Shown: positions 28,174-42,889 of the stretch, in pieces
Layout: every line of letters starts with the position of its first letter
Position numbering within the stretch: the first letter of the stretch is position 1
Origin: Acetobacteraceae bacterium
GTDB taxonomy: Bacteria; Pseudomonadota; Alphaproteobacteria; Acetobacterales; Acetobacteraceae
Direction: 5' to 3'
Length of the DNA: 64,000 bases
Assembly (NCBI GenBank): GCA_030041375.1
Contig: JASHOA010000019.1
Span: forward strand, 1 to 64,000
Notes under the pieces: model-generated
Told to the model about the DNA's origin: nothing
Seen by the model: the letters and a program-made list of their open reading frames with translations, nothing else
Databases searched by the model: none
Translations under genes and position numbers: made by a program

Positions 28174-28301
28174 CACTTTTGCGGGCGGATCGCTATTCTG
28201 AGACCAATCGATCGGAAGTCTGGGGCGGCGACCATGTTGAAGCTTAAATTCGGAGATGGGCCAAGCATTTTTTCTCGGCCGGCCGGCTAGGATACGCAAC
28301 G

Positions 28302-29228
28302 ATGGTGATGACGCGGGCGATCAGCAAGGCCTTCTTCAACGCCTACAGCGAGAACCAACCCATCAGGGCGCGACTGGAAGGGGTCGCCGACCTGATGCGG
28401 CACGGCTACATCGACAATGCGTGGGAGATCATCCAGAGCCTCAACCAGACACAGGGCCAGTTGCAACCACTCGAGTGGCTGTCCTGGGCCTGCGACCGCC
28501 TGGAGATTCTGCGCCCGCCGCCGTACGACGATCCTAATGATATCGAAACGATAGCCGTGGATGGCCTTTCGCGCGGCGTGCCCGTCCGGCCTCCGACGGA
28601 CGTGATGATCGCCCGCTCCTGGGCGGCGACGCGGGTCATCGTCGCCTTCGGCGGCGTCGGCGAGGCTTTCTGGTCGGTGCCGCCGTTCCTCGAGGTGCCG
28701 AACTGCCATCTTGTCATGCTGCGCGATACGACCCGGCTGTTCCACGTCGCCGGCATCGAGGGGCTGGGCGGTAGCTACGCAGACTGCGTGGCCGGGCTGC
28801 GCAGGGTCATCAAGAAGCTCGGCGCGACCCAGGTCTTCGTCAGCGGCAACTCGAGCGGCGGTTATGCCGCCCTTCGCTACGCGCTCGATATCGAAGCGCG
28901 CGGGGTCCTGGCGTTCAGCCCCTTCACCCGGCTCAACGCCAGCGAGGAGGAACTGGCAAAATTCCCGGCCGTGCGCCCGCTTTCACGCAGCCGCCCCGAG
29001 ATGATGGAAGACCTGCTGCCCCTCTATCAGAGCCATCCGAACCCGCCCAAGGTCATCATCGTCTATGGCGACAAGCATCCCGTGGACACGGAACATGCAC
29101 TGCGCATGAAAGATCTGCCGAACGTCGCCCTGGAACCGGTGCACGGCTATGACGGGCATCATGCCTGGGCAAAGCTCCTGGAAGAGAACAAGTTCCGCCC
29201 GCTCCTGAAACAGCTCCTCGCGTTCTGA
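28302..29228 (+). CDS. Alpha/beta-fold hydrolase-like protein of unknown function
   Basis: A 308-residue protein. The first 90 residues are helical (ISKAFFNAYSENQPIRARL, then DNAWEIIQSLNQTQGQL). The rest is a hydrolase fold with nucleophile S184 in FVSGNSSGGYAALRYAL, a probable acid in IIVYGDKHPVDTEHALRM and a histidine in GYDGHHAWAKLLEENKF. Similar proteins occur beside polysaccharide or glycan loci in alphaproteobacteria, but I cannot name a substrate. It is a single gene with about 130 bp upstream and 74 bp before clpS. Confidence 0.7.
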   Translation: MVMTRAISKAFFNAYSENQPIRARLEGVADLMRHGYIDNAWEIIQSLNQTQGQLQPLEWLSWACDRLEILRPPPYDDPNDIETIAVDGLSRGVPVRPPTDVMIARSWAATRVIVAFGGVGEAFWSVPPFLEVPNCHLVMLRDTTRLFHVAGIEGLGGSYADCVAGLRRVIKKLGATQVFVSGNSSGGYAALRYALDIEARGVLAFSPFTRLNASEEELAKFPAVRPLSRSRPEMMEDLLPLYQSHPNPPKVIIVYGDKHPVDTEHALRMKDLPNVALEPVHGYDGHHAWAKLLEENKFRPLLKQLLAF

Positions 29229-29302
29229 CCGCCGCATGAACGCCTCGTCCACGCCATGCCAACCTCAGACTCAGTGAGCCATCATCGTGAGGAGGTCCTC
29301 CG

Positions 29303-29608
29303 ATGACCAACATCACCGTCACGCCAGAGACGAAGGTCCGGCCGGCCATCGAACGGCCGCGCCTGCACAAGGTGATCCTGCTCAACGATGATTACACGCC
29401 GCGCGAATTCGTCGTCACCGTGCTGAAGGGCGAGTTCCGGATGAGCGAGGAGCAGGCGCATCGCGTCATGATGACCGCGCATAGGCGCGGCGCCTGTGTC
29501 GTCGCCGTCTACACGAGGGATGTCGCCGAGGCCAAGGCGACGCACGGCACGGAAGCCGGCCGCCGCAAGGGCTATCCGCTTCTCTTCACGACCGAGCCGG
29601 AAGAATAG
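29303..29608 (+). CDS. clpS: ATP-dependent Clp protease adaptor ClpS
   Basis: A 101-residue N-recognin adaptor that delivers proteins with bulky hydrophobic N-termini to ClpAP. The signature HKVILLNDDYTPREFVVTVL forms the N-degron pocket (Asn-Asp-Asp) and is followed by the conserved AHRVMMTAHRRGACVVAVYTRDVAEAK. A GAGGAGG-like ribosome site (gaggaggtcctcc) precedes the ATG. clpA is not adjacent, although it often is. Alphaproteobacteria frequently carry two clpS copies, so this may be ClpS1 or ClpS2. Confidence 0.95.
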   Translation: MTNITVTPETKVRPAIERPRLHKVILLNDDYTPREFVVTVLKGEFRMSEEQAHRVMMTAHRRGACVVAVYTRDVAEAKATHGTEAGRRKGYPLLFTTEPEE

Positions 29609-29626
29609 GACCGCTGTCAGGGGCTG

Positions 29627-30832
29627 TCAGAGGAACGAGGTATCCGCCTCCTGCCCGAGCATGAGTTGGCCCACCGTCTCGAAATGCGATGCCCGGCCCT
29701 GCAATTGCTGCGCCACCGCATGGATGTCGCGAAAGCGCCGTTCGAACGGGCTCGTTTCGAAGATCGCCGTCGCACCAGCCCAGTGATAGGCGAAGTCGGC
29801 GACGGCCATCGCCTCGTGGATCACGTGCGTGGCGGCAAGCCGGATCGCCGCCCGCTCCTCGAGCGCGAGGCGCCCGGTGCGCAGCACCGACTGCCAGACC
29901 TCGGAAACGGTACCGAAGAGATACATGCGTGCCGCGCGCATGCGCGCCTCCGCACGGGCGATCTCGTACTGGCTCACCGGGCTCGCGCGCATGCTGGTTT
30001 TGAGTGCGCGTGGCGTTTTCTCCCGCGCCAGCGCAATCAGCGCCTCGAGCATGGCGCGCGCGATACCCGCCGCGACCGCCGCGAACCCCGAGCCGTAGAG
30101 GCTGTTGCTGGGATAGAGATAAAGGGGTGCGGGATGGCGCCGCTCCGCCGGATCATCGCGAGAGATCGAATGCGCCTCGGGAACGAACAGATTCTCGATC
30201 GTATAAGCGTCACTGCCGGTACCGCGCAGCCCGATCACGCGCCAGATATCAACGAGCCTGGTCGAGTCCGCCGGGAACAGCATCGTGCGCGTGACCACGG
30301 CGCCATCCGGCCCACGCCGCTCCTGCCCGCCGTCGGTGACGATGCAGTGCCCGCCGAGCCAGTTCGCGTGGTGCCCGCCACTGGCGAAGGACCACTTGCC
30401 GCTGACCCGATAGCCGCCGGGAACGGCTTCGGCCCGGCCACCGAAGCCGGCGCCCCAGGCGATGACGGTCGGACTGCCCCGGCCGAAAATTTCCTGCGCC
30501 GCTTCGGGTGCCAGAAACGCAGCCACCGAGTTGCACACATTGGTCTGGGCGAGGCACCACGCGGTGCTGGCATCGATCCCCGCGATCGCCTCCAGGATGG
30601 CACCGAACGTCGGCGGGTCCAGCTCGGCACCTCCCAGGCTGTTCGGTACTAAAAGGCCGAAAAATCCGGCCGCTTTGAGTTCCGTCACCAGGCGCTCGGG
30701 AAGCCTTCTCTCGCGTTCGATCTCGGCCGCCGCGGCAGCGATCGAGGGCAGGATCACCCGGGTGCGCTCGAGCCAGTCTGTACGCGGGACATCGGCGGGC
30801 CGCGCCCCCGCTCTCAAGGCTTCCTCAGGCAT
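29627..30832 (-). CDS. Acyl-CoA dehydrogenase family protein (flavin monooxygenase-like)
   Basis: A 401-residue protein of the group D acyl-CoA dehydrogenase fold that includes HsaA, DszC and p-hydroxyphenylacetate hydroxylase oxygenase subunits. Visible: SLGGAELDPPTFGAILEAIA, DASTAWCLAQTNVCN, YRVSGKWSFASGGHHANWLG and RGTGSDAYTIENLFVPE. The usual acyl-CoA dehydrogenase catalytic Glu region is not conserved in this subgroup. A monooxygenase role using reduced flavin is therefore more likely than beta-oxidation. No flavin reductase is adjacent. Start at the ATG 30830-30832; a TTG one codon earlier is in frame. It converges on clpS. Confidence 0.82.
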   Translation of the reverse strand: MPEEALRAGARPADVPRTDWLERTRVILPSIAAAAAEIERERRLPERLVTELKAAGFFGLLVPNSLGGAELDPPTFGAILEAIAGIDASTAWCLAQTNVCNSVAAFLAPEAAQEIFGRGSPTVIAWGAGFGGRAEAVPGGYRVSGKWSFASGGHHANWLGGHCIVTDGGQERRGPDGAVVTRTMLFPADSTRLVDIWRVIGLRGTGSDAYTIENLFVPEAHSISRDDPAERRHPAPLYLYPSNSLYGSGFAAVAAGIARAMLEALIALAREKTPRALKTSMRASPVSQYEIARAEARMRAARMYLFGTVSEVWQSVLRTGRLALEERAAIRLAATHVIHEAMAVADFAYHWAGATAIFETSPFERRFRDIHAVAQQLQGRASHFETVGQLMLGQEADTSFL

Positions 30833-30994
30833 CAACCGGACGCGCCGCCACCCTCGCCCTCCCTCATTTCCATGCTGCTGCGAAAAGCGATCTCAGTTTG
30901 ATCGCTCTGCCCCGCCCTGGCAAGTCATACGGACCTGGCGCGAAGCGTACGAATCTTCGATGCTTTGGATCTGTTCGCGAATGCCGGGAGGCAC

Positions 30995-31822
30995 CTAACG
31001 GATCTTCCGGAAGACAATGTTGTAGTGAGTAAACACGGGCCTGACCCATTGCGGAATGCAGGACTCGATATGAATAAAAGCCTCGCCCAGCTTGAAGTTC
31101 GGCAATGTCCGGTAATAGCGGAGCCGTTCTTTGGCCAATCCATGATCACGAAATTTCTTTATCAGCGCTGCCGGAATGATCACTCGTTCGTGACCCCAGG
31201 GATGCCCCTCGTGAGTGGCGATTGTGGTCGTTCCGCGAAGCCTCAGCAGATTCAACTGCAAGAGGGGATTCCAGGCGTTTGCTTCTGAGACGACCAGCCA
31301 ACCGCCAGTCCGGATCAGTTCGGCCACCTTCGGAACCACTTCGGATCTCGGCTCAAGATGATGGAAAGACTGCTCCATATAAATGATATCGAATGCTCCG
31401 AGATCGTTTGCCGACAAAATGGACTTCTTGAGAAAGCTGCAGTTCAGCCGCCGGCCGCTTTCCGCTTCCAGCCAGCTCTTTCGTTCGTTGGCAACTGCAA
31501 GCAGATGATCCATGATGTCGATGCCGACGACCTGCGCTCCGAGGAGCGCAGCCCAGAGGGATTCCGTGCCGCAGCCACATCCGACCTCCAGGACGGCCGG
31601 GCTGCCAAAAGAACGTATGAGCTCGGTCAGCTCCTCGGTTTGCCGCTCGTACCAGTGCTGCATGTATTTCCCGAAATTCCTTTTATAGCTCGCGTAATAT
31701 CGCTCCAGTACCGCCTGGGACCCTGGGGTCAAGACGGGATTATTCAGCCAGAAAGCGAGAAATTCCGCTATATTGGAGGCGGTCCAGGGAGGTTGCGGCA
31801 CAGTGTCACCCTCGGCAGGCAC
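30995..31822 (-). CDS. Class I SAM-dependent methyltransferase
   Basis: A 275-residue Rossmann methyltransferase. The SAM motif I is AVLEVGCGCGTESLWAALLG (about 77-95), followed by VVGIDIMDHLLAVANE and the post-I acidic loop; motif IV is FDIIYMEQSFHHLEP. A roughly 75-residue N-terminal helical segment and a C-terminal region with RYYRTLPNFKLGEAF lie outside the core. The codon usage and base composition are visibly less GC-rich than the neighbours, suggesting recent acquisition. A repeat and a MITE-like element lie immediately upstream. The substrate is unknown. Confidence 0.85.
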   Translation of the reverse strand: MPAEGDTVPQPPWTASNIAEFLAFWLNNPVLTPGSQAVLERYYASYKRNFGKYMQHWYERQTEELTELIRSFGSPAVLEVGCGCGTESLWAALLGAQVVGIDIMDHLLAVANERKSWLEAESGRRLNCSFLKKSILSANDLGAFDIIYMEQSFHHLEPRSEVVPKVAELIRTGGWLVVSEANAWNPLLQLNLLRLRGTTTIATHEGHPWGHERVIIPAALIKKFRDHGLAKERLRYYRTLPNFKLGEAFIHIESCIPQWVRPVFTHYNIVFRKIR

Positions 31823-31832
31823 GATCGCCTGT

Positions 31833-31937
31833 TAGCCCGCGATCGCCCGAGGCGGAATCGTCGGAGGGCGTGAATCGCGGGCTCGAATAAAGCGCGAGAC
31901 CCGTGTCGGGCTGCACAGTCAGCCCGACACGGGTCTA
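31833..31937. repeat. 105-bp dispersed repeat, copy 1, with 17-bp hairpin
   Basis: Nearly identical to 35878-35982 (three mismatches in 105 bases, same orientation). It ends in a perfect inverted repeat: arm 31897-31913 (AGACCCGTGTCGGGCTG), loop CACAGT, arm 31920-31936. There is no T-tract after the hairpin, so it is not a textbook terminator. It is more like a REP/BIME-type or recombination-associated element. Confidence 0.9.
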
Positions 31938-32068
31938 GTACCCGGAATCACACATGGGTGACACAGGCTCCCTCACCCGGCGCTCCGCGCCGCCCTCTCC
32001 CAGAGGGAGAGGGTAACGTGTTTCGAGGTCATGTGAGTGAGTCACTCATGAGTGAAAGTTGGTACTAG
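31935..32068. mobile_element. MITE-like element with terminal inverted repeats
   Basis: A 134-bp non-coding element bounded by CTAGTACC at 31935 and its reverse complement GGTACTAG at 32061-32068. The imperfect inverted termini extend about 32 bp, with roughly 70 percent matching. The interior holds a second hairpin (CCCTCTCCC-aga-GGGAGAGGG near 32010). It begins exactly where repeat copy 1 ends; copy 2 lacks it, so it probably inserted there. The TA at each edge would fit a TA target duplication of IS630/mariner type. No transposase is inside. Confidence 0.65.
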
Positions 32069-32107
32069 CCTACACGGGGGGGCGCTCCAGCCCAGGAGAA
32101 CAGCCGC

Positions 32108-33082
32108 TCATATGATCTGGTTGCGGAGCATTGTCTCGCCGCGCCAGAGGCGATCGAGATTCTCGAGCAGCAGGTCCAGCACATTGTCTTCGTAAGCCCG
32201 CGTCTCGCCTGCCGTGTGCGGGGTGATCAGCACGTTCGGCATCGTCCAGAGCGGCGAAGCGGGCGCCAGCGGTTCGATCTCGGCGCAATCGAGTGCCGCG
32301 CCGGCAAGCCGCCCCTCCTCGAGGGCTTTGATCAGCGCCGGCTCGTCGACACAGCGGCCGCGCGCGACATTGACGAGAAATGCCGAAGGCCGGAAGCGGG
32401 CAAGCGCGGAGGCGCCGATCAGTCGCGTGGTTTCCGCGGTCAGCGGGCAGGCAAGCACCACGAAATCCGCCTGCCCGACGAGCCACTCGAGCCGGTCCGG
32501 CGCAAACACCTTGTCCGCCGCGCCGGCCCCCGCGGCCGGATCGCGCCTCGTCGCAAGCACGGTCATCCCGAAGGCCTTGGCAAGCCGCGCCAGACGGTTC
32601 CCGATCCGCCCGAGCCCGACGATCAGCATCGTCTTGCCACCAAGTTCGTCCTCCCGCGCCGACGGATCGCCGATCATCCCGCGCCAGAACTTCCGCGCCT
32701 GGTTGTCGCGCGCTTCCGGAAGCCGCCGCACCAGTGCCAGCATCAGCGCTATCGCGTGCTCCGCCACCGCGTTGGCGTTCGCTCCATGCGCACTCGCCAG
32801 GCGCACACCGTGCCGGGCGAGTGCCTCGCGTCCGTACTGATCGACCCCGGCACTGATCGATTGGATGAAGCGCAGCCGCCCTGCCTTTTCGAGCAGCGCG
32901 TCATCCCAAAGAAGAGAGACCACGAGCACATCGGCCGTACCGATCCGCGCCTCGAGTGCCTCGCGTGTGCGGACCTCGAAGCTCCGGATGCCGGTTCCGC
33001 GCGCCAGGAAGCGCTCCTGCAGCCGATAGGCGACGTGCGCGAAGCAGATCTCCAGATTTTCCCGTCCCGGCAGCAGCGTCAT
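32108..33082 (-). CDS. D-2-hydroxyacid dehydrogenase family protein
   Basis: A 324-residue NAD(P)-dependent dehydrogenase of the D-isomer-specific 2-hydroxyacid family (glyoxylate/hydroxypyruvate reductase-like). Residues about 155-175 are the nucleotide motif TMLIVGLGRIGNRLARLAKAFG. The active-site Arg is in NVARGRCVDEPAL, the Glu in DCAEIEPLAP and the His in LITPHTAGETRAYEDN. The ATG at 33080-33082 has GAGGAG upstream and lies 10 bp after the molybdenum hydroxylase stop, so the two genes are co-transcribed. The substrate is unknown. Confidence 0.9.
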   Translation of the reverse strand: MTLLPGRENLEICFAHVAYRLQERFLARGTGIRSFEVRTREALEARIGTADVLVVSLLWDDALLEKAGRLRFIQSISAGVDQYGREALARHGVRLASAHGANANAVAEHAIALMLALVRRLPEARDNQARKFWRGMIGDPSAREDELGGKTMLIVGLGRIGNRLARLAKAFGMTVLATRRDPAAGAGAADKVFAPDRLEWLVGQADFVVLACPLTAETTRLIGASALARFRPSAFLVNVARGRCVDEPALIKALEEGRLAGAALDCAEIEPLAPASPLWTMPNVLITPHTAGETRAYEDNVLDLLLENLDRLWRGETMLRNQII

Positions 33083-33092
33083 CGCCTGCTCC

Positions 33093-35444
33093 TCATGGTG
33101 TCGAGGTCCGTCTGCCCGCCTGGATCGCCTGCCAGATGCGCTCCGGTGTCGCCGGCATGTCGAGGCTCCTGATGCCCAGTGGAGCGAGCGCATCGAGGAT
33201 CGCGTTCATCACCGTCTGCGGTGCCGCCATTGCGCCCGCCTGCCCGGAGCCCTTGACACCCAGCGGATTGGCCGCGCTCGGCGCTTCCACCAGCGTGATC
33301 TCGAAGGCTGGCAGATCGTCGCTGCGTGGCAGGGCATAGTCGAGCAGGGACCCGCTGAGGAACTGGCCGCTCGCCGGGTCGTAGACGGCCGCTTCGAGCA
33401 GCGCCTGGCCAATCCCTTGCGCCACCCCGCCATGCACCTGGCCGGTCGTGATCAACGGGTTGATCAGGCGCCCGAAATCGTCGGTCGCGCTGTAGCGGAC
33501 CAGCCTGTTCGCTCCGGTTTCCGGGTCGATCTCAACCTCTGCGACATGGCAGCCGTTCGGAAAAGTGAAGATATCGCAACGGTTGAGCGCCCGGGAATCG
33601 AGGCCCGGGGCCATCCCCACGGGCAGTTCGGTTCGCCTTTGTGCAGCCGCCGCAGCATCCAGAAGATCGATGCCGGGAGAGCCTTTCACGCCGCGCAGGC
33701 GAAACGTGCCGTTTGCGAATTCAACCTCGGACGGATCCGCCTGCATGAGATGCGAAGCGACCAGCACGCCCTTCTCGATCACCTGGCGGGCGGCGAGAAC
33801 GAGCGCCGTCCCTCCCATGTGCATGGAGCGTGCGCCGCCATGGCCATGCCCCTCCGGCACGCGCTCGGTATCCGCCTGCACGAAGCGGAACCGCTCGACC
33901 GGCAGCCCGAAAAGATCGGCGGCGATCTGCGCGTAACTGGTTTCGTGGCCCTGCCCGTTCGATTGCGTGCCGAGCAGGAGTTCGACCGTGCCGTCTCCCG
34001 GAAAGCGGATCGCAGCACTCTCCTCGGTTGCCCCGCGCGCCGTCTCCAGGAAACAGGCGATGCCGAGGCCCCTGAGCCGGCCCCTGGAGGCAGCTTCGGC
34101 GCGGCGGGCGGCAAAGCCCTCCCTGCCTCTCTCGACCGCGGCCGCGAGGTTGGCGGCGAACTGTCCTTCTGCGATCACCGTTCCGGCTGCATTGCGATAG
34201 GGAAACGTCGTCACCAGGTTCATCTCTCTCAGCCGCACGGGATCCCGGCCGGTCTCGTGCGCCGCGAGATCGACCAGCCGCTCGATGAGATAGTTTGCCT
34301 CCGGCTTGCCGGCGCCCCGATAAGCATCGACCGGGACCGTGTTGGTGAAAGCGCCACGCACTTCGACCGCGAGTGCCGGAATGGCGTAGACGCCGCCCAT
34401 CGCCGTCATGTTGGTGGGAACGCCGGGCGCGTAGCCGGAGAGATAGGCGCCGAGATTGGCCACCGTCTCGACCGCGAGAGCGAGGAAACGGCCTTCGGAA
34501 TCGAGCGCCAGCCGAGCCGTCGAATGCTGGTCGCGACCTTGCGTGTCGGAGACGAAATCCTCGCTGCGATCGGCTACCCAGCGCACCACACGGCCCAGCC
34601 GCCGCGCCGCCCAGAGTACGAGAATCCATTCCGGATAGAGAGAGTTCTTCATGCCGAACCCGCCGCCCACGTCGGGTGCGAAGAGCCGGATGCGCTCGGC
34701 AGGCAGGTGGAACACGTCCCTGGCGAGTTCCAGGCGAACCTCCTGCACGCCCTGCCCGGTGAGCATCAGGAAAAGCATCCCGGTCTCGGAGCTATAGCGG
34801 CCGATCGCCGCACGCGGCTCGATCGGTGTGGCGAGCACACGGTTATTGACGAGCGCCAGTTCGCTGACATGGGCGGCGGCGCCGAAGGCGGCATCGGTCG
34901 CCGCCCGGTCTCCCGCACGGAAGAGAAAGGCCAGGTTGCCCGGCGCCTCTTCCCAAAGAGTGGGCGCGCCATCGCGAAGCGCTGCCGCCCCGTCGACGAC
35001 GGCGGGAAGAATTCCGTAATCGACGGCAATCATCTCGGCCGCGTCGCGCGCCGCATTCCGGCTGTCGGCAACGACGAACGCCACCGGGTCGCCGACATGG
35101 CGCACCCGCTCCCTCGCCAGCGCGTGGCGCGGCGGCACGACGAGCGGCGTGACCGTCCGCACTTTGGCGACGCAGGGCATCGGGCCAAGTCCGTCGAGAG
35201 CGAGATCGGCCGCGGTGAACACGCCGGCCACCCCGGGCATGTCCCGGGCCCGCGCGGTGTCGATCCGCTCTATCGACGCATGCGCGTGCGGCGAGCGCAC
35301 CACGTAGAGAAAGAGCGCGCCTTCCGCCGGCTCGTCATCGACAAATGATCCTGCACCGGTGAGAAAGCGCACATCTTCGCGGCGCCTCAGCGAACGGCCG
35401 ATCTGTCGCCCCGCTGCCCCGTCCTCTACCGCCTCCCGTTCCAT
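33093..35444 (-). CDS. Xanthine dehydrogenase family molybdopterin-binding subunit (lone large subunit)
   Basis: A 783-residue CoxL/XdhB-type subunit that binds the molybdenum-cytosine-dinucleotide cofactor. Visible: IGRSLRRREDVRFLTGAGSF start, TGQGVQEVRLELARDVF, APDVGGGFGMKNSLYPEW, the AYRGAGKPEANYLIERLVD loop of form II (non-CO) enzymes, and GTQSNGQGHETSYAQI. The catalytic glutamate expected in VKG.GE.G is glutamine (Q735 in GVKGSGQAGAMAAP). The FAD and 2Fe-2S subunits are not adjacent. It forms an operon with the 2-hydroxyacid dehydrogenase. The substrate is unknown; it is not predicted to be a CO dehydrogenase. Confidence 0.9.
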   Translation of the reverse strand: MEREAVEDGAAGRQIGRSLRRREDVRFLTGAGSFVDDEPAEGALFLYVVRSPHAHASIERIDTARARDMPGVAGVFTAADLALDGLGPMPCVAKVRTVTPLVVPPRHALARERVRHVGDPVAFVVADSRNAARDAAEMIAVDYGILPAVVDGAAALRDGAPTLWEEAPGNLAFLFRAGDRAATDAAFGAAAHVSELALVNNRVLATPIEPRAAIGRYSSETGMLFLMLTGQGVQEVRLELARDVFHLPAERIRLFAPDVGGGFGMKNSLYPEWILVLWAARRLGRVVRWVADRSEDFVSDTQGRDQHSTARLALDSEGRFLALAVETVANLGAYLSGYAPGVPTNMTAMGGVYAIPALAVEVRGAFTNTVPVDAYRGAGKPEANYLIERLVDLAAHETGRDPVRLREMNLVTTFPYRNAAGTVIAEGQFAANLAAAVERGREGFAARRAEAASRGRLRGLGIACFLETARGATEESAAIRFPGDGTVELLLGTQSNGQGHETSYAQIAADLFGLPVERFRFVQADTERVPEGHGHGGARSMHMGGTALVLAARQVIEKGVLVASHLMQADPSEVEFANGTFRLRGVKGSPGIDLLDAAAAAQRRTELPVGMAPGLDSRALNRCDIFTFPNGCHVAEVEIDPETGANRLVRYSATDDFGRLINPLITTGQVHGGVAQGIGQALLEAAVYDPASGQFLSGSLLDYALPRSDDLPAFEITLVEAPSAANPLGVKGSGQAGAMAAPQTVMNAILDALAPLGIRSLDMPATPERIWQAIQAGRRTSTP

Positions 35445-35509
35445 CGGCCGATGCTGCCGCGCGCCACGAGCGCGGTCCAGGCGCGGTCGTCACCTCCGGG
35501 AAAATGGTC

Positions 35510-35845
35510 TCAGGCGCCGGCAAGCGGGCCGTACGCCTTGAGCATCGCCTCGGTGCGCGGGACGACCGTGGTGTCGCCGCTCACCTGGTCGCCGAGGGCG
35601 GTGAGGCCGGCACCGACGGCCGCGCCGACCGGGCCGCCGGTGACGAAGCCCTGGGCCGCTGCGCCGAGAATTTGCAGCGGGTGGTCGCCGATGGCCCGGA
35701 AGATCGTGCCGAGCACCGGCACTTGTTGCAGCGGGTCGAGAGTAGCTTGCAGCGTCTGGTCGAAGGTTCCGCCGGAGGTGACCGCCGGCGGAAGCTCGGA
35801 GGGATTGGCATTCGGCGGAGTGAGGGAGGAAACTGCAGTGACCAT
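35510..35845 (-). CDS. Small hypothetical protein with glycine-rich hydrophobic segment
   Basis: A 111-residue protein from the ATG at 35843-35845 with a GGAGG ribosome site. The N-terminal 30 residues are Pro/Ser/Thr-rich. The middle reads LQQVPVLGTIFRAIGDHPLQ. Residues about 60-85 (GAAAQGFVTGGPVGAAVGAG, then LTAL) form a glycine-zipper-like hydrophobic stretch that could insert in membrane or pack in an oligomer. There is no signal peptide. It lies 65 bp upstream of the molybdenum hydroxylase in the same direction and is preceded by repeat copy 2. I do not recognise a family. Confidence 0.6.
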   Translation of the reverse strand: MVTAVSSLTPPNANPSELPPAVTSGGTFDQTLQATLDPLQQVPVLGTIFRAIGDHPLQILGAAAQGFVTGGPVGAAVGAGLTALGDQVSGDTTVVPRTEAMLKAYGPLAGA

Positions 35846-36207
35846 GACACCTCCGGATTCGTTGGCTCGGGCGAAGCTAGCCCGCGATCGCCCGCGGCGG
35901 GATCGTCGGAGGGCGTGAATCGCTGGCTCGAATAAAGCGCGAGACCCGTGTCGGGCTGCACAGTCAGCCCGACACGGGTCTAAGCAACCGGCATGCCAGC
36001 GAAGGTGGCTCCGCCGGCGGGGACAGGGGTATGGTGGGTCGGTTCCGCTTGTCTTGCGCCCGCTCAGCGAATCATGTGCAGTGGGGACCGTCGGCACCCG
36101 GATCGACACCAGGCGGTGGGCCTGCCTTATGGCTATCACTTTTTGGTAGAAGATGGGGCTGGGCGGCCGGGCTCTGACGGTTCGGGCCGACGCAAGGAGG
36201 AACGAAG
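35846..36207. other. Gap between hypothetical gene and response regulator
   Basis: The gap is divergent and contains repeat copy 2 (35878-35982) and about 225 bp of leader before the response regulator. Bases 36120-36160 (tatggctatcactttttggt) are relatively A+T-rich and may hold its promoter. No gene was seen. Confidence 0.5.
35878..35982. repeat. 105-bp dispersed repeat, copy 2, with 17-bp hairpin
   Basis: Same sequence and orientation as 31833-31937, with the hairpin arms at 35942-35958 and 35965-35981 and the same CACAGT loop. In this copy the sequence continues directly into unique DNA (agcaaccggc), with no MITE-like insert. The left edge starts about 32 bp upstream of the hypothetical gene's ATG, so it lies in that gene's leader. 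Confidence 0.9.
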
Positions 36208-36927
36208 ATGGCGGGTGAACGCCCGATTCTGGTCGTCGACGACGATCGCGCATTGCGGGCTACTTTGGCCGAGCAGCTTGCCGTCGAGGGTGAGTTCGCC
36301 GCCGTCGAGGCTGCCACGTTGAGCGAGGCGGAGACCCTGCTTGCTGCCAGGGACGCCCGTTTCGATGCACTGATCCTGGATGTCCGCCTTCCGGACGGCG
36401 ACGGGCGGGATTTCTGCGTCCGCCTACGCCGGCAAGGGCTGAAGATTCCGATCGTGATGCTCACCGGCTCGGACGAGGAAGCCGATGTGGTGCGCGGCCT
36501 CGATTCGGGTGCCAACGACTACATCGCCAAGCCCTTCCGCTTGGCCGAACTGCTGGCCCGCCTGAGAGCACAGCTCCGCATCTTCGAGAACAGCGAGGAT
36601 GCCGTCTTCCTGATCGGTCCCTATGTTTTCCGCCCGGCCGCCAAGATGTTGCAGGAGCCGGTCCGCAACCGCCGCATCCGGCTGACCGAGAAAGAAACGT
36701 CCATTCTCAAGTTCCTTTATCGCTCCGGAAGCCGCCCGGTGGCGCGGCAGGTGCTGCTCAACGAGGTGTGGGGCTACAACTCCGCGGTGACGACGCATAC
36801 TCTGGAGACCCACATCTACCGCCTGCGGCAGAAGATCGAGCCGGATCCAGCGCACGCGCGGCTCTTGATCACCGAAGGCGGCGGCTACCGTCTGGATCCG
36901 CAAGGCCTGCCGCACACCACCTCCTGA
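36208..36927 (+). CDS. OmpR/PhoB-type response regulator
   Basis: A 239-residue two-component regulator. The receiver domain spans 1-120, with the acidic pocket VVDDDRA, phospho-acceptor D58 in ALILDVRLPDGDGRD, T86 in MLTGSDEEADV and K108 in YIAKPFRLAELLARLR. The winged helix at about 140-235 keeps LTEKETSILKFLYRSGSRPVAR, VWGYNSAVTTHTLETHIYRLRQK and LLITEGGGYRL. AAGGAGG precedes the ATG. No histidine kinase gene is adjacent, so it is an orphan in this window. Its targets are unknown. Confidence 0.93.
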   Translation: MAGERPILVVDDDRALRATLAEQLAVEGEFAAVEAATLSEAETLLAARDARFDALILDVRLPDGDGRDFCVRLRRQGLKIPIVMLTGSDEEADVVRGLDSGANDYIAKPFRLAELLARLRAQLRIFENSEDAVFLIGPYVFRPAAKMLQEPVRNRRIRLTEKETSILKFLYRSGSRPVARQVLLNEVWGYNSAVTTHTLETHIYRLRQKIEPDPAHARLLITEGGGYRLDPQGLPHTTS

Positions 36928-36959
36928 ACGCTCCCGGCTCGGACCGCCGGCCGGCTCCC

Positions 36960-37745
36960 TCAGGGGCTCACTGCCTGCGGGAGCAGCGGGACCGGCCCCG
37001 GAGAAGCCGGCCCAGGGGAGACAGGCCCAGGTGAGACAGGCAACGTGCCGAGGATACCCGGCTGAGGCCCCGCCCCCGAGGGCGGGACCGCGGCCGGTGC
37101 GGGCTCTGTGCCAGCCGGCGCAGCAGCAGGTGCGGGCGCCGCACCGGTTGCGCCCGGCGCCGGCAACGGCGCGGTCTCGATGGCGGCGGGGGTCGTCGAG
37201 GATTGCGCCAGCCAATCCCCGAGACTACGCCGAAGCTGGTATTCGAACTCGACATTCATCGTGTTCATCAGCCGCCCTGTCAGGTCGTAGAGCGCCTGGC
37301 GGAGTGCCGCACCCTCGCCGGACGGAGCATGCGCGCCCTGCGCGGCGCGCGCCTCCGCGAAGCCCGCTTTGGTCCCGTCTGCCGAATAGACATCGAGCCT
37401 GACTGCAAACGAGCCGGAAAGCTCCGGGCCGTCGCGCACCAGGGAAGCATCCTCGATCACGAACACCGCCTTGCCCGAGGTGCCATAAGCGCCCAACCGG
37501 TCTTTTGCCATCTGGCGCAGCGCCGCCAGCGGGGTTTCCGGTGCCAGCGATTCAACATGATCCGGCTCGTCCCCCGGCTGCCATTCGTTCTCGATCTCGA
37601 TCGAAGCCACGTTCAGCTTGAGCACCGGCAGATAATTGTAACGGAGCGGCGGAAAATTCTCGCCCCTCGGAGCACCCGTTGCACATCCTGTCACCGCCAC
37701 CGCCAGCAGCATGAGGGCGCGGCGCGGCACCCCGCGGACGGTCAT
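36960..37745 (-). CDS. Probable lipoprotein with proline-rich C-terminus
   Basis: A 261-residue protein starting MTVRGVPRRALMLLAVAVTG. The signal peptide ends in a lipobox with C21, so the mature protein should be lipid-anchored. Residues about 35-185 form a globular domain (LPVLKLNVASIEIENEW, AKDRLGAYGTSGKAVFVIEDASL, then an LGDWL end) resembling small alphaproteobacterial outer-membrane lipoproteins of unknown function. The last 60 residues are Ala/Pro-rich with near-tandem SPGPV units encoded by the short repeats at about 36985-37040. It lies 60 bp downstream of hslO on the same strand. Confidence 0.82.
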   Translation of the reverse strand: MTVRGVPRRALMLLAVAVTGCATGAPRGENFPPLRYNYLPVLKLNVASIEIENEWQPGDEPDHVESLAPETPLAALRQMAKDRLGAYGTSGKAVFVIEDASLVRDGPELSGSFAVRLDVYSADGTKAGFAEARAAQGAHAPSGEGAALRQALYDLTGRLMNTMNVEFEYQLRRSLGDWLAQSSTTPAAIETAPLPAPGATGAAPAPAAAPAGTEPAPAAVPPSGAGPQPGILGTLPVSPGPVSPGPASPGPVPLLPQAVSP

Positions 37746-37805
37746 CTCAGGGGGCTCCTTCCAATCGGTTCGCCCGATCCAGCCTGACGTTCGCCACCGC
37801 AACGG

Positions 37806-38765
37806 TCAATCCGCCCGACCGCGCCCCGTGATCTCCGCACGCGAGAAACGGAAATCGAGATTGCAAAATTCGCAGGTCATGACGATCGCACCGTTGGTGG
37901 TCATCTGGTCGAGATCTTCGATCCCGAACCCTTCGAGGATGCCCGAGAGCCGCGCCCGCGTGCAGCGGCAGCCATACGCAAGCGCACGCGGCGCCTCGGT
38001 GAGCACACCTTCGCTGTGGAAAAGCCGATACAGCAGATGTTCGGAGGCAAGCCGATCGTCGAGCAGTTCCGCATCCGAGAGCGTGGTGGCGAGCGCGGTC
38101 GCCGTTCGCCAGGCCTCCGCCTGGTCCTCGCGATCCCGACCCGGTTCCCGGGACCCGCTTGAGGCAATGCGTTCCAGGATCAGCGCCCCGGCGCGCCAGC
38201 CATCCCTGCCCCGTCCCGCGGCAAGACGCACCAGGCCGGCAAGCTGCATGCTCTCCCGGAAATAAGCGAGCGCCATCTCCTCCAGGCTCTCCCCGCTCAG
38301 CGCCACGATCCCCTGGTGGCGTTCGCGCCCGGCACCCGGATCGACCGTGAATGCGAGATAGCCTTGCCCCAGCAGGTCCGCCGCACTGGGTGCCGGCAGC
38401 GCCTCGAAGAGGGCGGCAAGGCGTGCCGCGTCGCTCCGGATATAGAACCGGAGCGCCCCGGCCTCGGTGCAGTCGGCATGCAGAGGCGAAACCGGACCAT
38501 TCCCCTTGATCTGCAGGCTGAACGAGCCCTGAAACCGCAGCGCCGAAGCCAGGCCTGCCACCAATGCGAGCGCCTCGGCGGCAAGTTGCGCCACGCGCTC
38601 ATGGTGGCGATGCCGCCCCAGCAGCGCCTCGGTCAGCGGGCCGAGCCGCACCAGGCGCCCGCGCACCGGATGGCGGGGAAGGAAGAACGGCAGGATCGCG
38701 CGCGGCACCACGATGTCCGGAACATCCGGTCGCAGGCGGTCGAGGAAGGCCGGCATCTCGGTCAT
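37806..38765 (-). CDS. hslO: Hsp33 family redox-regulated chaperone
   Basis: A 319-residue Hsp33. The C-terminal zinc centre is complete: CRC (in YGCRCTRARLSGIL) and CEFC about 30 residues later. These cysteines release zinc and form disulfides under oxidative stress, turning the holdase on. The N-terminal domain carries LSLQIKGNGPVSPLHADCTEAG-like residues (SLQIKGNGPV). Start at the ATG 38763-38765; a GTG one codon earlier is in frame. Alphaproteobacteria often place hslO near argF/argD; here it lies between a lipoprotein and ygfZ. Confidence 0.95.
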   Translation of the reverse strand: MTEMPAFLDRLRPDVPDIVVPRAILPFFLPRHPVRGRLVRLGPLTEALLGRHRHHERVAQLAAEALALVAGLASALRFQGSFSLQIKGNGPVSPLHADCTEAGALRFYIRSDAARLAALFEALPAPSAADLLGQGYLAFTVDPGAGRERHQGIVALSGESLEEMALAYFRESMQLAGLVRLAAGRGRDGWRAGALILERIASSGSREPGRDREDQAEAWRTATALATTLSDAELLDDRLASEHLLYRLFHSEGVLTEAPRALAYGCRCTRARLSGILEGFGIEDLDQMTTNGAIVMTCEFCNLDFRFSRAEITGRGRAD

Positions 38766-38810
38766 CACACGACTCTAACGGCTAGCGGTCCCACGGGCCA
38801 TGCGCGGCGT

Positions 38811-39626
38811 TCATGGGCGCAACCGCATCCAGGCAGGAACCCGCGGCGTCAGCACCGCCTCCCCGCAGGTCAGCCGCTCGCCGAGCGAGTCGATACGCAG
38901 CGAGGCGAGGCCGAGCGCGCGCCGGCCGGAGCGCATGCTGCCGCGCGCCGCCCCATCGCCTTCGACCGGTGTCGCCGGCAGAGGCAGCGGGCCGGAGACG
39001 ATGACGGGCACCAGCCGGCGCTTGATCAGCCCGCGATAGCGGGTGCGGGCGGTGAGTTCCTGGCCCATGTAACAGCCCTTGCTCCAGGACACGCCCGCAA
39101 GTTCGTCGAATCCGGCTTCGAGCAGGAGCGTCCGCTCCGACTCGAGATCGCGGGATCCATCCGGCAGGCCGAGCGCCAGCCGGTGCAAATCCCAATCTTC
39201 GAAGCTGGCGTTGGCCGCCAGCGGCGCCCGCGAAAGAAGCCGCCACCCGGCCTCCGCCAACCGCGGATCAGGAGCCGAGATCACCTCGGTTGTAAAATCC
39301 GGCTGGCCGCCCCAGGCGGCATAAACAAGGAATTCCGCCGAGGCATCCGCGATCTCGACCTCGGCGCGCAGCCGATAACGCAAGAGCCGGGTCATGAGCA
39401 TCGCCGCGTGCGCCCGCTCGCAATCGACAAGAAGGCGCACCCCGTCGGTCAGGATGAAGAAATCAGCGAGCCATTTCCCCTGCGCGGTCAGGAGTGCGGC
39501 CCACACCGCCCGACCCGGCGCAACCTCCGCCACGTCGTTCGATACCAGGCCTTGCAGGAAGGCCACCTGATCCCTGCCCGCGATGGCCAGCACACCGCGG
39601 TCAGGAAGATGGGCAAGATGAAGCAT
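38811..39626 (-). CDS. ygfZ: YgfZ/CAF17-like folate-binding Fe-S protein maturation factor
   Basis: A 271-residue protein of the YgfZ/GcvT-like family, which uses tetrahydrofolate to help repair or assemble Fe-S clusters in enzymes such as MiaB. The family signature is present as SWSKGCYMGQELTARTRYRG, with the conserved Cys. The N-terminal HLPDRGVLAIAGRDQVAFLQGLVSND is typical. The start is uncertain: the ATG at 39624-39626 is used, while a TTG at 39662 would add twelve residues. The pyrC gene that often neighbours ygfZ in alphaproteobacteria lies two genes away. Confidence 0.9.
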   Translation of the reverse strand: MLHLAHLPDRGVLAIAGRDQVAFLQGLVSNDVAEVAPGRAVWAALLTAQGKWLADFFILTDGVRLLVDCERAHAAMLMTRLLRYRLRAEVEIADASAEFLVYAAWGGQPDFTTEVISAPDPRLAEAGWRLLSRAPLAANASFEDWDLHRLALGLPDGSRDLESERTLLLEAGFDELAGVSWSKGCYMGQELTARTRYRGLIKRRLVPVIVSGPLPLPATPVEGDGAARGSMRSGRRALGLASLRIDSLGERLTCGEAVLTPRVPAWMRLRP

Positions 39627-39794
39627 GCCGGCGAACGTGGGTCCTGGCGCGGATAACGACAAGGCGTGCTAGACTCTGCGTCTCGCGAACCACGACACGG
39701 CCAGGCAATTGGTATCGGCATCCTCGAACGAGCGCTGCCGCGCTGACCGGCGCGGCCCAGGCAACCGGCCTCCCGCTCCGGGGACGCAGCACTG

Positions 39795-41558
39795 ATGTGC
39801 GGCATCGCTGGCCTCATTCTGCGCAACGATGCCCAACCGCCGCCGCCCGAAACGCTGGCCCGGCTCACCCGCGCGCTGGCACATCGCGGACCCGATGGCA
39901 CCGGGCAGACCATGGTGGGCAGAATTGCCTTGATCAGCACGCGCCTTGCCATCATCGACCTGGCAGGCGGCGACCAGCCGCTGTTCGCCGGCGGCGCCGC
40001 GCTGGTCGCGAACGCTGAAATCTACAATTACCGCGAACTCCGCGCGGCCATGCCGGAAGTCCGGTTCGCAACCGGGAGCGATTGCGAACCGGCGCTGCAT
40101 CGTTGGCTCCGCGACGGGTCTGACTACGTGAAAGCGCTTCGCGGCATGTATGCCATCGCCGTGCATGAGCGGGCGGCACGAACCGTCACGCTCTCGCGGG
40201 ATCCGTTCGGCATCAAGCCGCTCTATCTTGCACCGATTGCCGACGGCCTCGCTTTCGCTTCCGAACCGCAGGCGCTGCTCGAAGCGGGGCTCGCCGCACG
40301 CTCGGTGCGAACGGCGGCGCGGGATGAGCTTCTGCAGATGCAGTTCGTCACCGGTCCGGAGACGATCTTCGAAGGTATCAACCGCCTCTTGCCGGGCGAG
40401 ACGCTCGTTTGCGCCGACGGGCACGTGCTGGAAAGGCACCGGATCGCGGCCCTTCCCGATGGCGGGCCGGAAGAGATCACGGAAGAGGCTGCTCTGGCGC
40501 GGCTGGATGCGGCACTCGCGGACAGCATCGAGCTGCATCTGAGAAGCGACGTGCCGTACGGTATGTTCCTTTCCGGCGGCATCGACAGCTCGGCGGTGCT
40601 GGCGATGATGCGCCGCGTGACCAACCAGGAAGTGCTTGCCTTCACCGCCGGTTTCGAGGCGCCCGGCGCCGCCGACGAGCGGAAGGCGGCCAAAGCGGTG
40701 GCAGAGGCGGTCGGGGCGCGTCACGAGACGATCGGCATCACCGAACAGATGGTCTGGCAGCATCTGCCCGAGATCGTCGCCTGCATGGATGACCCCGCCG
40801 CCGATTATGCGATCATCCCAAGCTGGTTCCTCGCCCGTCGGGCGCGCCAGGATGTCAAGGTCGCCTTATCCGGCGAGGGCGGGGACGAAATCTTCGCCGG
40901 TTACGGCCGCTACCGCACGGCCATGCGCCCCTGGTGGCTGGGTGGGCGCGTGATGCGTGCGCGCGGCACCTTCGACCGCCTGGATGTGCTCCGCTCGCGC
41001 CCGGGAACCTGGCGGGACGGGCTTGGCGCGGACGAGGCGGCAGCACTGCAGAACGGCCGCTCGCGCCTCGCCGTGGCGCAGGCCACCGACATCGCCGGCT
41101 GGCTGCCGAACGACCTGCTCCTCAAGCTCGATCGCTGCCTCATGGCGCATGGCATTGAGGGACGTACTCCGCTCCTCGACCCGGCGGTTGCCGCGGCAAC
41201 GTTCTGCCTGCCGGATGCACTCAAGGTACGCAGCGGCCGCGGCAAGTGGCTGCTCAGGCGCTGGCTCGAACGGCATCTTCCGGCGGCCCGGCCGTTCGCA
41301 CCGAAGCAGGGCTTCACCGTCCCGGTCGGGGCCTGGATCGCCGCCGCGGGTGCCAGGCTCGGCGCCCTGGTCGCGGCCTCGCCGGCAATCGAGGAAATCG
41401 CAGAACCTTCGCGCGTGATCGCCCTGTTCCGCGGCGCCGCCGGCCGGCGCGAAGGATTCGCGGCCTGGACACTGCTCTTTTACGCCCTCTGGCACCGTCG
41501 ACATGTCATCGGGCTACCGCCCGCCGGAGATGTGTTCGCAACCCTTGCCGCGCGCTGA
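39795..41558 (+). CDS. asnB: Asparagine synthase (glutamine-hydrolysing)
   Basis: A 587-residue class B asparagine synthetase. The N-terminal nucleophile is Cys2 (MCGIAGL) after Met removal. The glutaminase domain covers about 1-200 (RALAHRGPDGTGQ, NAEIYNYRELRA). The synthetase domain has the PP-loop FLSGGIDSSAVLAMM near residue 260 and ALSGEGGDEIFAGYGRYRT. It converts aspartate to asparagine via beta-aspartyl-AMP. Its length and the XrtA-locus-like C-terminus allow an amidotransferase role in another pathway, but the context (pyrC, argH) is metabolic. The ATG follows the divergent ygfZ. Confidence 0.9.
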   Translation: MCGIAGLILRNDAQPPPPETLARLTRALAHRGPDGTGQTMVGRIALISTRLAIIDLAGGDQPLFAGGAALVANAEIYNYRELRAAMPEVRFATGSDCEPALHRWLRDGSDYVKALRGMYAIAVHERAARTVTLSRDPFGIKPLYLAPIADGLAFASEPQALLEAGLAARSVRTAARDELLQMQFVTGPETIFEGINRLLPGETLVCADGHVLERHRIAALPDGGPEEITEEAALARLDAALADSIELHLRSDVPYGMFLSGGIDSSAVLAMMRRVTNQEVLAFTAGFEAPGAADERKAAKAVAEAVGARHETIGITEQMVWQHLPEIVACMDDPAADYAIIPSWFLARRARQDVKVALSGEGGDEIFAGYGRYRTAMRPWWLGGRVMRARGTFDRLDVLRSRPGTWRDGLGADEAAALQNGRSRLAVAQATDIAGWLPNDLLLKLDRCLMAHGIEGRTPLLDPAVAAATFCLPDALKVRSGRGKWLLRRWLERHLPAARPFAPKQGFTVPVGAWIAAAGARLGALVAASPAIEEIAEPSRVIALFRGAAGRREGFAAWTLLFYALWHRRHVIGLPPAGDVFATLAAR

Positions 41559-41566
41559 TCGATCGC

Positions 41567-42889
41567 ATGCCTGAATTCTACGAGCTCCTCATCCGCGGCG
41601 GCCGCGTGATCCTGCCTTGGGGCGTGGAGGAAACCGACATTGGTATCGCCGGCGGGCGCATCGCGGCCCTCGGCGTCGGCGGCGCGGCGAGCGCAGCCGA
41701 AACGATCGTCGCGCGCGGCCTCGTCGTGCTGCCCGGCCTGATCGACCCGCACGTCCACCTCCGCGATCCGGGAGACCGCTCGGTCGAGAGCATCCCGACC
41801 GGCACCCGCGCCGCCGTGCTGGGCGGGCTCGCCGCGGTGTTCGATATGCCGAACACGACGCCCCCACTCACCGATTCCGGGCAGCTCGCCTGGAAGCAGG
41901 CCTACGCGGAGCGTTCTGCCTGGTGCGATATCGGGCTCTATGTCGGAGCGACGAAGACCAACATCGCCTCTCTCGCGGTGCTGGAGACAGGGCGCGGGGT
42001 GTGCGCGATCAAGGTCTTCGCCGGCAGCTCCACCGGCGAACTCCTGGTCGAGGACGACGCCAGCCTCGAACGCGTGATGCGCGCCGGCAGCCGGCGAATC
42101 GCCTATCACTCGGAAGACGAGTACCGGCTGCGCGCGCGGCGGGCATTTTTCCACGCCGGAGAGCCCTATCGACGGCACATGGAATGGCGCGACGAGGAGA
42201 CCGCCTTCCTAGGCACCCGACGACTGATGGCCCTGGCGCGCCAGACCGGCCGGCCCGCGCACATCCTGCACGTCTCGACCGCCGAGGAGCTTTCATTCCT
42301 CAAAAGCCACAAGGACATCGCCACCGTCGAAGTCCTGGTTAACCATCTCACGCAAGCTGCGCCGGAAGCCTATGACACGCTCGGCGGCTACGCGGTGATG
42401 AACCCCCCGATTCGCGACCGGCGCCACCTCGAGGCCGCCTGGGCCGCGGTTGCCGACGGCACCGTCGACACCGTCGGCTCGGATCATGCCCCGCACAGCC
42501 GCGCCGCCAAGGAAAGACCCTGGCCCGATTGCGCTGCCGGCCTCACCGGCGTGCAGACCATCGTTCCGGTGATGCTCGATCAGGTGAATGCCGGACGGCT
42601 TAGCCTCTCGCGGCTCGCCGATCTAATGTGCGCGGGGCCGGCACGCGTCTATGGCGTTCGCTGCAAGGGCCGGATCGCGGCCGGTTACGATGCCGATTTC
42701 ACCATCGTCGATCTCGATCACCGCCGCCGCGTCGAGGAAAGCTGGCTTGCCTCGCCGTGCGGCTGGAGCCCCTTTACCAGCGCCATGCTCAAGGGCTGGC
42801 CGATCATGACGATCGTGCGCGGCAACGTCGTGATGCGCGAGGACGAGGTGCTCGGCGAGCCACGGGGCAAGCTGGTTTCCTTCGCCTGA
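41567..42889 (+). CDS. pyrC: Dihydroorotase (type I)
   Basis: A 440-residue amidohydrolase that cyclises carbamoyl-aspartate to dihydroorotate. The metal ligands are H62 and H64 in GLIDPHVHLRDPG, the carbamylated lysine K149 in CAIKVFAGSSTG and the aspartate in DTVGSDHAPH. The length and DPHVHLRDPG motif are of the type I (PyrC2/allantoinase-like) class. The gene starts 8 bp after asnB, so the two are co-transcribed. An allantoinase or hydantoinase is the main alternative, but NPPIRD and HAPH context favours dihydroorotase. Confidence 0.9.
   Translation: MPEFYELLIRGGRVILPWGVEETDIGIAGGRIAALGVGGAASAAETIVARGLVVLPGLIDPHVHLRDPGDRSVESIPTGTRAAVLGGLAAVFDMPNTTPPLTDSGQLAWKQAYAERSAWCDIGLYVGATKTNIASLAVLETGRGVCAIKVFAGSSTGELLVEDDASLERVMRAGSRRIAYHSEDEYRLRARRAFFHAGEPYRRHMEWRDEETAFLGTRRLMALARQTGRPAHILHVSTAEELSFLKSHKDIATVEVLVNHLTQAAPEAYDTLGGYAVMNPPIRDRRHLEAAWAAVADGTVDTVGSDHAPHSRAAKERPWPDCAAGLTGVQTIVPVMLDQVNAGRLSLSRLADLMCAGPARVYGVRCKGRIAAGYDADFTIVDLDHRRRVEESWLASPCGWSPFTSAMLKGWPIMTIVRGNVVMREDEVLGEPRGKLVSFA

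What the first reader, a model, noticed from the sequence alone, without database searches (positions are those of the whole stretch)
31833..35982. Two 105-bp direct hairpin repeats bracket a metabolic module
The repeats at 31833-31937 and 35878-35982 differ at only three bases and have the same orientation. Each contains a perfect 17-bp stem with CACAGT loop. They enclose exactly the hypothetical gene, the molybdenum hydroxylase and the 2-hydroxyacid dehydrogenase. This could be a dispersed REP-like family, or it could mark a unit gained or lost by recombination.
Basis: seen in the sequence. Interest (0 to 1): 0.55.

Follow-up and report, generated by a model that had tools for sequence, protein, structure and literature searches.

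The report
Jumping hairpin repeats, not a module
The two matching 105-base hairpin repeats are two of about 200 copies of a small mobile DNA element scattered between this bacterium's genes; they most likely landed beside these metabolic genes by chance, and their build hints at how such elements move and why many carry a cell-cycle methylation mark.

Summary
In detail: two 105-bp direct repeats, 102/105 identical, each with a perfect 17-bp stem and CACAGT loop. The module reading is not supported. The hairpin occurs at 198 places in the genome. In a same-genus genome (G001, about 95% DNA identity) the DNA of the enclosed genes is present and both repeats are absent. Of 22 sites compared, 10 are empty in G001, 9 of them base-exact on both sides. 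None of 43 full copies checked lies in a called gene.

Copies are TA-[101 bp]-TA in a YTAR target: two hairpins and a linker, with a GANTC (CcrM) site in hairpin 1. That is the published description of alphaproteobacterial CIR repeats, whose mobility was unexplained.

New here: GANTC starts 23 bases from the terminal TA in the repeat, and in the left ends of 15 of 17 alphaproteobacterial IS630 elements of one subgroup, amid otherwise unconserved bases. IS630 uses the same YTAR target. Best reading: CIR-type repeats are non-autonomous IS630-type elements. The transposase for this family was not found; methylation control is inference.

The parts
31833..31937 (+). CIR-type element copy 1: TA (31833-31834), 101-bp core (31835-31935), TA (31936-31937)
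   Evidence: absent in G001, exact on the left side, right flank noisy with a 1-base length difference
31834..31883 (+). hairpin 1 of copy 1 (element positions 2-51)
   Evidence: folds; over 28 sequences 11 of 19 pairs have changes on both sides and 0 of 500 shuffles reach the covariation score
31855..31859 (+). GAATC (GANTC, CcrM-type site) in the hairpin 1 loop, starting at position 23 from the terminal TA
   Evidence: GANTC at 23 in 53 of 70 copies of length 105; 15 of 28 sequences across genera
31872..31876 (+). second GAATC, at the foot of hairpin 1 (position 40)
   Evidence: intact in 70 of 70 copies of length 105; 25 of 28 sequences across genera
31897..31936 (+). hairpin 2 of copy 1: 17-bp perfect stem, loop CACAGT
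   Evidence: 198 places genome-wide with up to 3 mismatches
31938..32065 (.). a different TA-bounded repeat (128 bp) sharing the TA of copy 1; its ends match both ends of an IS630 type B of this genus
   Evidence: one end 25 of 30 identical; the other 20 of the 28 bases compared
35878..35982 (+). CIR-type element copy 2: TA, 101-bp core (35880-35980), TA; its GANTC at position 23 is lost (GGATC)
   Evidence: base-exact empty site in G001
35942..35981 (+). hairpin 2 of copy 2
30995..31822 (-). methyltransferase-like gene on the outer side of copy 1 (PF08241), not part of the element
32108..33082 (-). D-2-hydroxyacid dehydrogenase between the copies
33093..35444 (-). molybdopterin hydroxylase large subunit between the copies
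35510..35845 (-). 111-aa ORF of unknown function between the copies

Best explanation
The repeats are two copies of a small non-autonomous mobile element of the CIR kind (CcrM-associated intergenic repeat of Alphaproteobacteria). The element is TA-[hairpin 1 with GANTC in its loop - linker - hairpin 2]-TA. Shown: the hairpin is dispersed at about 200 places; the full copies checked lie between genes; they sit in YTAR sites, and where the sister genome lacks a copy it has a single dinucleotide; the 5' end shares the tip-to-GANTC spacing of IS630 left ends. Inferred: an IS630-family (Tc1/mariner-like) transposase supplied in trans recognised both ends, moved the element into YTAR sites and duplicated the TA; the GANTC site derives from an IS630 left end, where it lies upstream of the transposase reading frame. 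The bracketing of the metabolic genes is most likely coincidence: separate insertions after the split from G001 (exact loss in G001 is not formally excluded).
For: 198 hairpin places. Of 22 sites compared with G001, 10 are empty, 9 base-exact on both sides. Of 74 distinct full copies from G000 and G001, 50 have TA at both ends and 19 more have TA at one end and a one-base neighbour of it at the other; the base before is C 55, T 18, A 1 and after is G 60, A 14, a palindromic YTAR target. 0 of 43 copies in called genes against 84.6% coding (home-made caller). The same hairpin 1 with different stem sequences and compensatory changes occurs in other genera, and similar elements in other families of the class. 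GANTC at 23 in the left end of 15 of 17 alphaproteobacterial IS630 elements, 0 of 4 others. In the 13 plasmid IS with it, pairwise identity is 31% at positions 7-22, 92% at 23-27 and 32% at 28-40; the base before TA is Y in 30 of 30 plasmid IS ends. The neighbouring repeat at 31938-32065 has an IS630-end pair. The genome encodes CcrM (E 1.1e-144 to chain 6pbd_A).
Against: No IS630 with this family's own tips was found; but all 5 places in this genome lie at contig ends and 11 of the 27 in five relatives are cut, so the search is weak (the motif TAGACCCG occurs once in those loci, inside an IS). The two ends of the element are only weakly alike. Its own match to IS630 left ends is the lowest of the seven CIR-type sequences tested (17 of 28; 12 of 603 null sites do as well, though that null still held damaged copies). 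GANTC at 23 is lost in 17 of 70 copies, copy 2 here included, and is present in only 15 of the 28 sequences across genera, against 25 of 28 for the second GAATC. Only 4 of 10 empty sites in G001 read TA. YTAR sites turn over fast in general (33 of 61 conserved, against 76.6% of other NTAN and 83.7% of all 4-mers), which can explain this, but one site (L008: TT..TA against CT) needs several changes.
Confidence: 0.7

Rival explanations
1. The repeats bracket a genomic unit gained or lost by recombination between them.
For: Same orientation and near identity would allow it.
Against: G001 has the DNA of the enclosed genes and neither repeat; G002 and G003 have the dehydrogenase and hydroxylase contiguous and their one search matches lie on other contigs; close pairs are expected by density.
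Confidence: 0.03
2. A REP/REPIN element moved by a RAYT (Y1 tyrosine transposase).
For: Hairpins, intergenic position, high copy number.
Against: No PF01797 match in this genome (0 of 1; the same search rang in 5 of 14 control genomes); TA at both ends and a symmetric YTAR target.
Confidence: 0.05
3. The same kind of mobile element, but moved by another transposase that uses YTAR or TA targets (for example IS5-type; that such IS use these targets is recalled).
For: TA duplication and YTAR preference are not unique to IS630 (recalled); no matching IS630 was found.
Against: The GANTC-at-23 spacing and tip resemblance are to IS630. A 4-bp duplication does not fit because the left Y varies (C/T) while the base before the right TA belongs to the element. 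IS5-type genes were not searched.
Confidence: 0.15
4. A structural RNA or transcription terminator kept by selection and spread as a by-product.
For: Very stable fold, covariation, excess in convergent gaps (14 of 41 against 34 of 203, p = 0.017).
Against: No Rfam family at gathering score in the window; exact presence/absence at YTAR sites in a close relative.
Confidence: 0.07

Closest known systems
CIR, Caulobacter CcrM-associated intergenic repeats (Chen and Shapiro 2003, known to me here only through the review PMC2229807, passages and section 7)
   Same: About 110 bp; two inverted-repeat arms joined by a linker; GANTC at the terminal loop of one arm; 5'TA3' at the termini; intergenic; abundant; Alphaproteobacteria.
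   Different: Stem sequences are its own; direct comparison with CIR1-CIR4 letters was not possible. The review marks target duplication with a question mark; here empty sites and a YTAR target are seen.
RIME (Rhizobium) and Bru-RS (Brucella)
   Same: Intergenic repeats of Alphaproteobacteria (RIME: PMC2573895, passages); Bru-RS is listed at 103-105 bp (PMC2267715, passages). That RIME1 is 106 bp with two palindromes is recalled.
   Different: Their sequences were not compared. S. meliloti pSymB gave one weak model match (E 0.019) without the TA + GANTC-at-23 pattern.
RUP of Streptococcus pneumoniae
   Same: 107 bp, intergenic, TA targets, proposed to be mobilised by IS630-Spn1 (PMC2229807, passages).
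   Different: RUP's terminal inverted repeats are reported to be highly similar to those of its IS; here only tip, target and GANTC spacing match.
IS630 family, ISRm2011-2-like subgroup
   Same: Y before TA at 30 of 30 plasmid IS ends, GANTC at 23 in the left end of 13 of 15.
   Different: The repeat has no transposase gene and its autonomous partner is not identified.
CGTC-tagged palindromic repeats (PMC3733652, abstract start and passages)
   Same: Palindromic repeats that predominate in Alphaproteobacteria and are not associated with transposase genes.
   Different: REPs are described there as small (20-40 bp) and CGTC repeats as missing from Acetobacteraceae; not the same architecture.

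Membership tests
CIR (CcrM-associated intergenic repeat) | two inverted-repeat arms joined by a linker | tested here: met
   covariation of arm 1
CIR (CcrM-associated intergenic repeat) | GANTC at or in the terminal loop of one arm | tested here: met
   GANTC at 23 in the hairpin 1 loop in 53 of 70 copies of length 105; but 15 of 28 across genera
CIR (CcrM-associated intergenic repeat) | 5'TA3' at the termini | tested here: met
   both ends in 50 of 74 copies, one end plus a one-base neighbour in 19
CIR (CcrM-associated intergenic repeat) | intergenic, about 110 bp, many copies | tested here: met
   105 bp, 198 hairpin places, 0 of 43 in called genes (home-made gene caller)
CIR (CcrM-associated intergenic repeat) | sequence homology to CIR1-CIR4 of Caulobacter | not tested
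   the original sequences were not reached; one Caulobacter plasmid accession tried from memory is not held
IS630-type MITE | insertion at TA with TA duplication | tested here: met
   10 empty sites in G001, 9 base-exact; only 4 of 10 read TA in G001
IS630-type MITE | same target preference as the IS | tested here: met
   YTAR in both
IS630-type MITE | terminal inverted repeats matching an autonomous IS of the same genome | tested here: inconclusive
   none found in 5 + 27 places, of which 5 + 11 are cut by contig ends
REP/REPIN (RAYT) | RAYT (Y1_Tnp) gene in the genome | tested here: not met
   0 of 1
Rfam RNA family | match above gathering score | tested here: not met
   0 matches in 64 kb

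The most novel reading that the evidence does not exclude
CIR-type repeats across Alphaproteobacteria are IS630-derived non-autonomous elements. Their name-giving CcrM site is the GANTC that IS630 left ends keep at exactly 23 bases from the terminal TA, upstream of the transposase gene; there CcrM/GcrA methylation gates transposase expression or end recognition to a phase of the cell cycle, as Dam methylation does for IS10 (recalled).
Probability: 0.4. Interest if true: 0.8.

Novelty: new member of a known kind. Interest (0 to 1): 0.55.

Why it matters
A 2007 review (PMC2229807, section 7 read) says that more information is needed on how CIR elements move and that the role of their GANTC has not been determined. 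The empty sites, the YTAR target and the GANTC-to-tip distance shared with IS630 left ends give a concrete answer to test for both, and suggest that a group of insertion sequences may be tied to the alphaproteobacterial cell cycle through DNA methylation. For the window itself it removes a false lead: nothing marks the metabolic genes as a mobile module.

Tried and rejected
Module exchange: not supported by G001-G003. RAYT/REPIN: no Y1_Tnp. Rfam: none. Plasmid DNA relatives of the 105-mer: none. An autonomous partner with matching tips: not found in the IS630 places of this genome or five relatives, a weak search because 5 of 5 and 11 of 27 of these places are cut by contig ends. A reading in which the element carries its own TA into non-TA targets was considered because 6 of 10 empty sites are not TA in G001; YTAR sites turn over fast in general (33 of 61 conserved), so it is not needed, but it is not excluded (site L008). 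G089, a class-wide model match, looks like a chance match inside coding sequence and was set aside. S. meliloti pSymB gave only a weak match that does not fit. The class-wide search scored at most 46 candidates per genome, so 5 of 115 genomes (own included) is a lower bound. Paper searches: searches turned up neither the original CIR nor the RIME paper; searches listed no paper whose title or abstract start claims an IS630-CIR link. Only listings, abstract starts and some passages were seen, so this is no proof that it is unpublished.

The seven CIR-type sequences with GANTC at 23 were representatives picked by me; in the alignment of 28 it is 15 of 28. An earlier count gave the JOPF016 count wrongly as 8. 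The odds were lowered slightly for the second point (0.72 to 0.70 and 0.45 to 0.40).

Full report
Observation. The two repeats are present as described: 31833-31937 and 35878-35982, same strand, 102 of 105 bases identical, each with a perfect 17-bp stem and CACAGT loop. Copy 1 folds into hairpin 1 (positions 2-51), a 13-base linker and hairpin 2 (65-104), z-score -8.4 as DNA and -8.2 as RNA, 0 of 200 shuffles as stable. It begins and ends with TA.

Copy number and placement. In the window's own genome (G000, 4.54 Mb, 95 contigs) the hairpin core is found at 198 places with up to 3 mismatches, 0 for the control pattern read backwards. The 40 best-scored of 321 candidates include many full-length copies 95-100% identical to the query; in fetched stretches of G000 and G001 older copies with up to 19 differences occur as well. 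So at least part of the family spread recently. In 20 stretches of G000 plus the window, 0 of 43 full copies lie inside genes called by a simple codon-usage caller, while 84.6% of the bases are coding. The stretches were chosen around known copies. Convergent gaps are over-represented (14 of 41 against 34 of 203, p = 0.017). At this density about 16 same-strand neighbour pairs within 4045 bp are expected, so the bracketing pair needs no special explanation.

The module. Window 26000-42000 was compared with six relatives. In G001 (same genus; five contig lengths equal those of JASHOF01, 'Acetobacteraceae bacterium isolate JOPF016') the alignment runs through the enclosed genes at about 95% identity and stops at both repeats. 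At base level copy 2 reads gcgaagc-TA-[101]-TA-agcaacc in G000 against gcgaagc-CA-agcaacc in G001. At copy 1, G000 has cctgt-TA-[101]-TA-[128]-TA-gcc and G001 has cctgt-TA-gcc; the left flank is exact, the right flank has several substitutions and a 1-base length difference within about 16 bases. The 128-bp insert (31938-32065) is a different repeat. G002 and G003 also carry the DNA of the dehydrogenase and hydroxylase contiguously, and their one search matches are on other contigs. The simplest reading is that the genes were there first and three small insertions came later; exact loss in G001 is not formally excluded.

Insertion signature. Twenty further G000 copies were tested with joined flanks in G001 (40 of 192 candidates scored). 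Eight are base-exact empty sites (51 to 59 of 60 flank bases identical without a gap), one is a site with a deletion, one holds a different repeat in G001 at the same place, and ten gave no usable orthologous match (one of them a partial match of the left flank only). With the window that is 10 empty sites of 22, 9 of them base-exact. In G001 the dinucleotide there is TA in 4 and something else in 6 (CA twice, TT, CT, TG, TC). YTAR sites are in general poorly conserved between these genomes (CTAG 11 of 20, other YTAR 22 of 41, against 791 of 1032 other NTAN and 83.7% of all 4-mers), so this fits target decay. Over 74 distinct full copies from G000 and G001 the ends are TA/TA in 50, TA at one end with a one-base neighbour at the other in 19, and otherwise in 5; the base before is C 55, T 18, A 1 and after G 60, A 14: a palindromic YTAR target. 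A 4-bp duplication does not fit, because the left Y varies while the base before the right TA belongs to the element.

Family. Seven of 40 genomes searched have matches: own, four of the genus, and two of other genera of the family. Most show the same hairpin 1 with other stem sequences, several with a second hairpin. Over 28 sequences, 86.9% of hairpin 1 cells pair, 11 of 19 pairs have changes on both sides, and 0 of 500 shuffles reach the covariation score. A model of hairpin 1 found matches in 5 of 115 genomes of the class, own included (a lower bound, at most 46 candidates scored per genome). Those in G067, G074 and G086 begin with TA and have a GANTC loop, several with a second hairpin; the one in G089 looks like a chance coding match. 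This is the published description of CIR elements: about 110 bp, two arms and a linker, GANTC at a terminal loop, TA termini, intergenic, mobility unexplained (PMC2229807, passages and section 7). Direct comparison with CIR1-CIR4 letters was not possible.

Link to IS630. The 128-bp neighbour has ends like an IS630 (type B) of this genus: one end identical at 25 of 30 bases, the other at 20 of 28. For the 105-bp family no IS630 with the same tips was found, but all 5 places in G000 lie at contig ends and 11 of 27 in five relatives are cut. IS630 type A of G000 and an IS630 of G019 carry GANTC at the same distance, 23 bases, from the terminal TA as the repeat. I therefore fetched IS630 regions, found with one query (40 of 923 records listed), from 21 alphaproteobacterial and 4 other plasmids. 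Both ends could be recognised in 15 of the 21; ends were chosen by inverted repeat and TA, not by GANTC. GANTC starts at 23 in the left end of 13 of these 15 (the two without are Methylobacterium and Methylorubrum), and of 15 of 17 with the two genomic ones. None of the 4 non-alphaproteobacterial left ends has it there, nor any of the 15 plasmid right ends (three right ends have a GANTC elsewhere, at 8, 8 and 22). In the 13, pairwise identity is 94% at positions 1-6, 31% at 7-22, 92% at 23-27 and 32% at 28-40, and the N of GANTC varies: a kept site in otherwise free sequence, upstream of the first long reading frame. Several of these IS come from the same genera, so they are not 13 independent events. 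The base before TA is Y in 30 of 30 of these ends.

How far the repeats share it. One representative of each of seven CIR-type families, picked by me and including a second 106-bp family of this genome, has GAATC at 23. In the 28-sequence alignment it is 15 of 28; the sequences of G018 lack it, while the second GAATC (position 40) is kept in 25 of 28. Among 70 copies of the 105-bp family GANTC at 23 is present in 53 and the second GAATC in 70; copy 2 of the window has lost the first. Against YTAR-anchored sites of this genome the 105-bp family's own match to IS630 left ends is the weakest of the seven (12 of 603 null sites as good; that null still held damaged copies).

Limits. IS630 type B has its GANTC at 25, and some other IS630 ends have none nearby (read). 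The genome encodes CcrM, but no methylation data exist here. GcrA was not searched. Which transposase moved this family, and whether methylation controls it, is inference; that GcrA prefers methylated GANTC sites at promoters is from PMC3667746 (passages).

Verdict. A dispersed mobile repeat of a known kind at this locus, not a module boundary; but the comparison yields a specific and testable proposal for how CIR-type repeats move and where their CcrM site comes from.

Noticed in passing
window 31938-32065: A second, unrelated TA-bounded repeat abuts copy 1; its ends match both ends of an IS630 type B, so it looks like that IS's non-autonomous derivative.
   Followed up: yes
flanks of copies in L018, L027, L141, L155: A third repeat family beginning TAGTGTCCTGCCCC sits beside several copies; in G001 a repeat of this kind occupies the site of a G000 copy (L146:12862). 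IS630 ends in G002 (L232) begin TAGTGT too.
   Followed up: partly
L155, L139, L146, L153, L166, L172: A second CIR-type family (106 bp, TAGAGCAGATC...), 6 copies in the fetched stretches, some sharing a TA with a 105-bp copy.
   Followed up: partly
G000 C35:18389-18619 (L022, L145): A head-to-tail array in which the first about 63 bases of the element are repeated.
   Followed up: no
G000 against G001 alignments: CTAG and other YTAR sites are conserved far less than other 4-mers (33 of 61 against 83.7%).
   Followed up: partly
L008: A copy with TT at one end and TA at the other, where G001 reads CT: several changes are needed under simple TA duplication.
   Followed up: no
plasmid loci L277-L299: In 8 of the 13 IS630 left ends with GANTC at 23 a second GANTC follows at 30-36.
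   Followed up: partly
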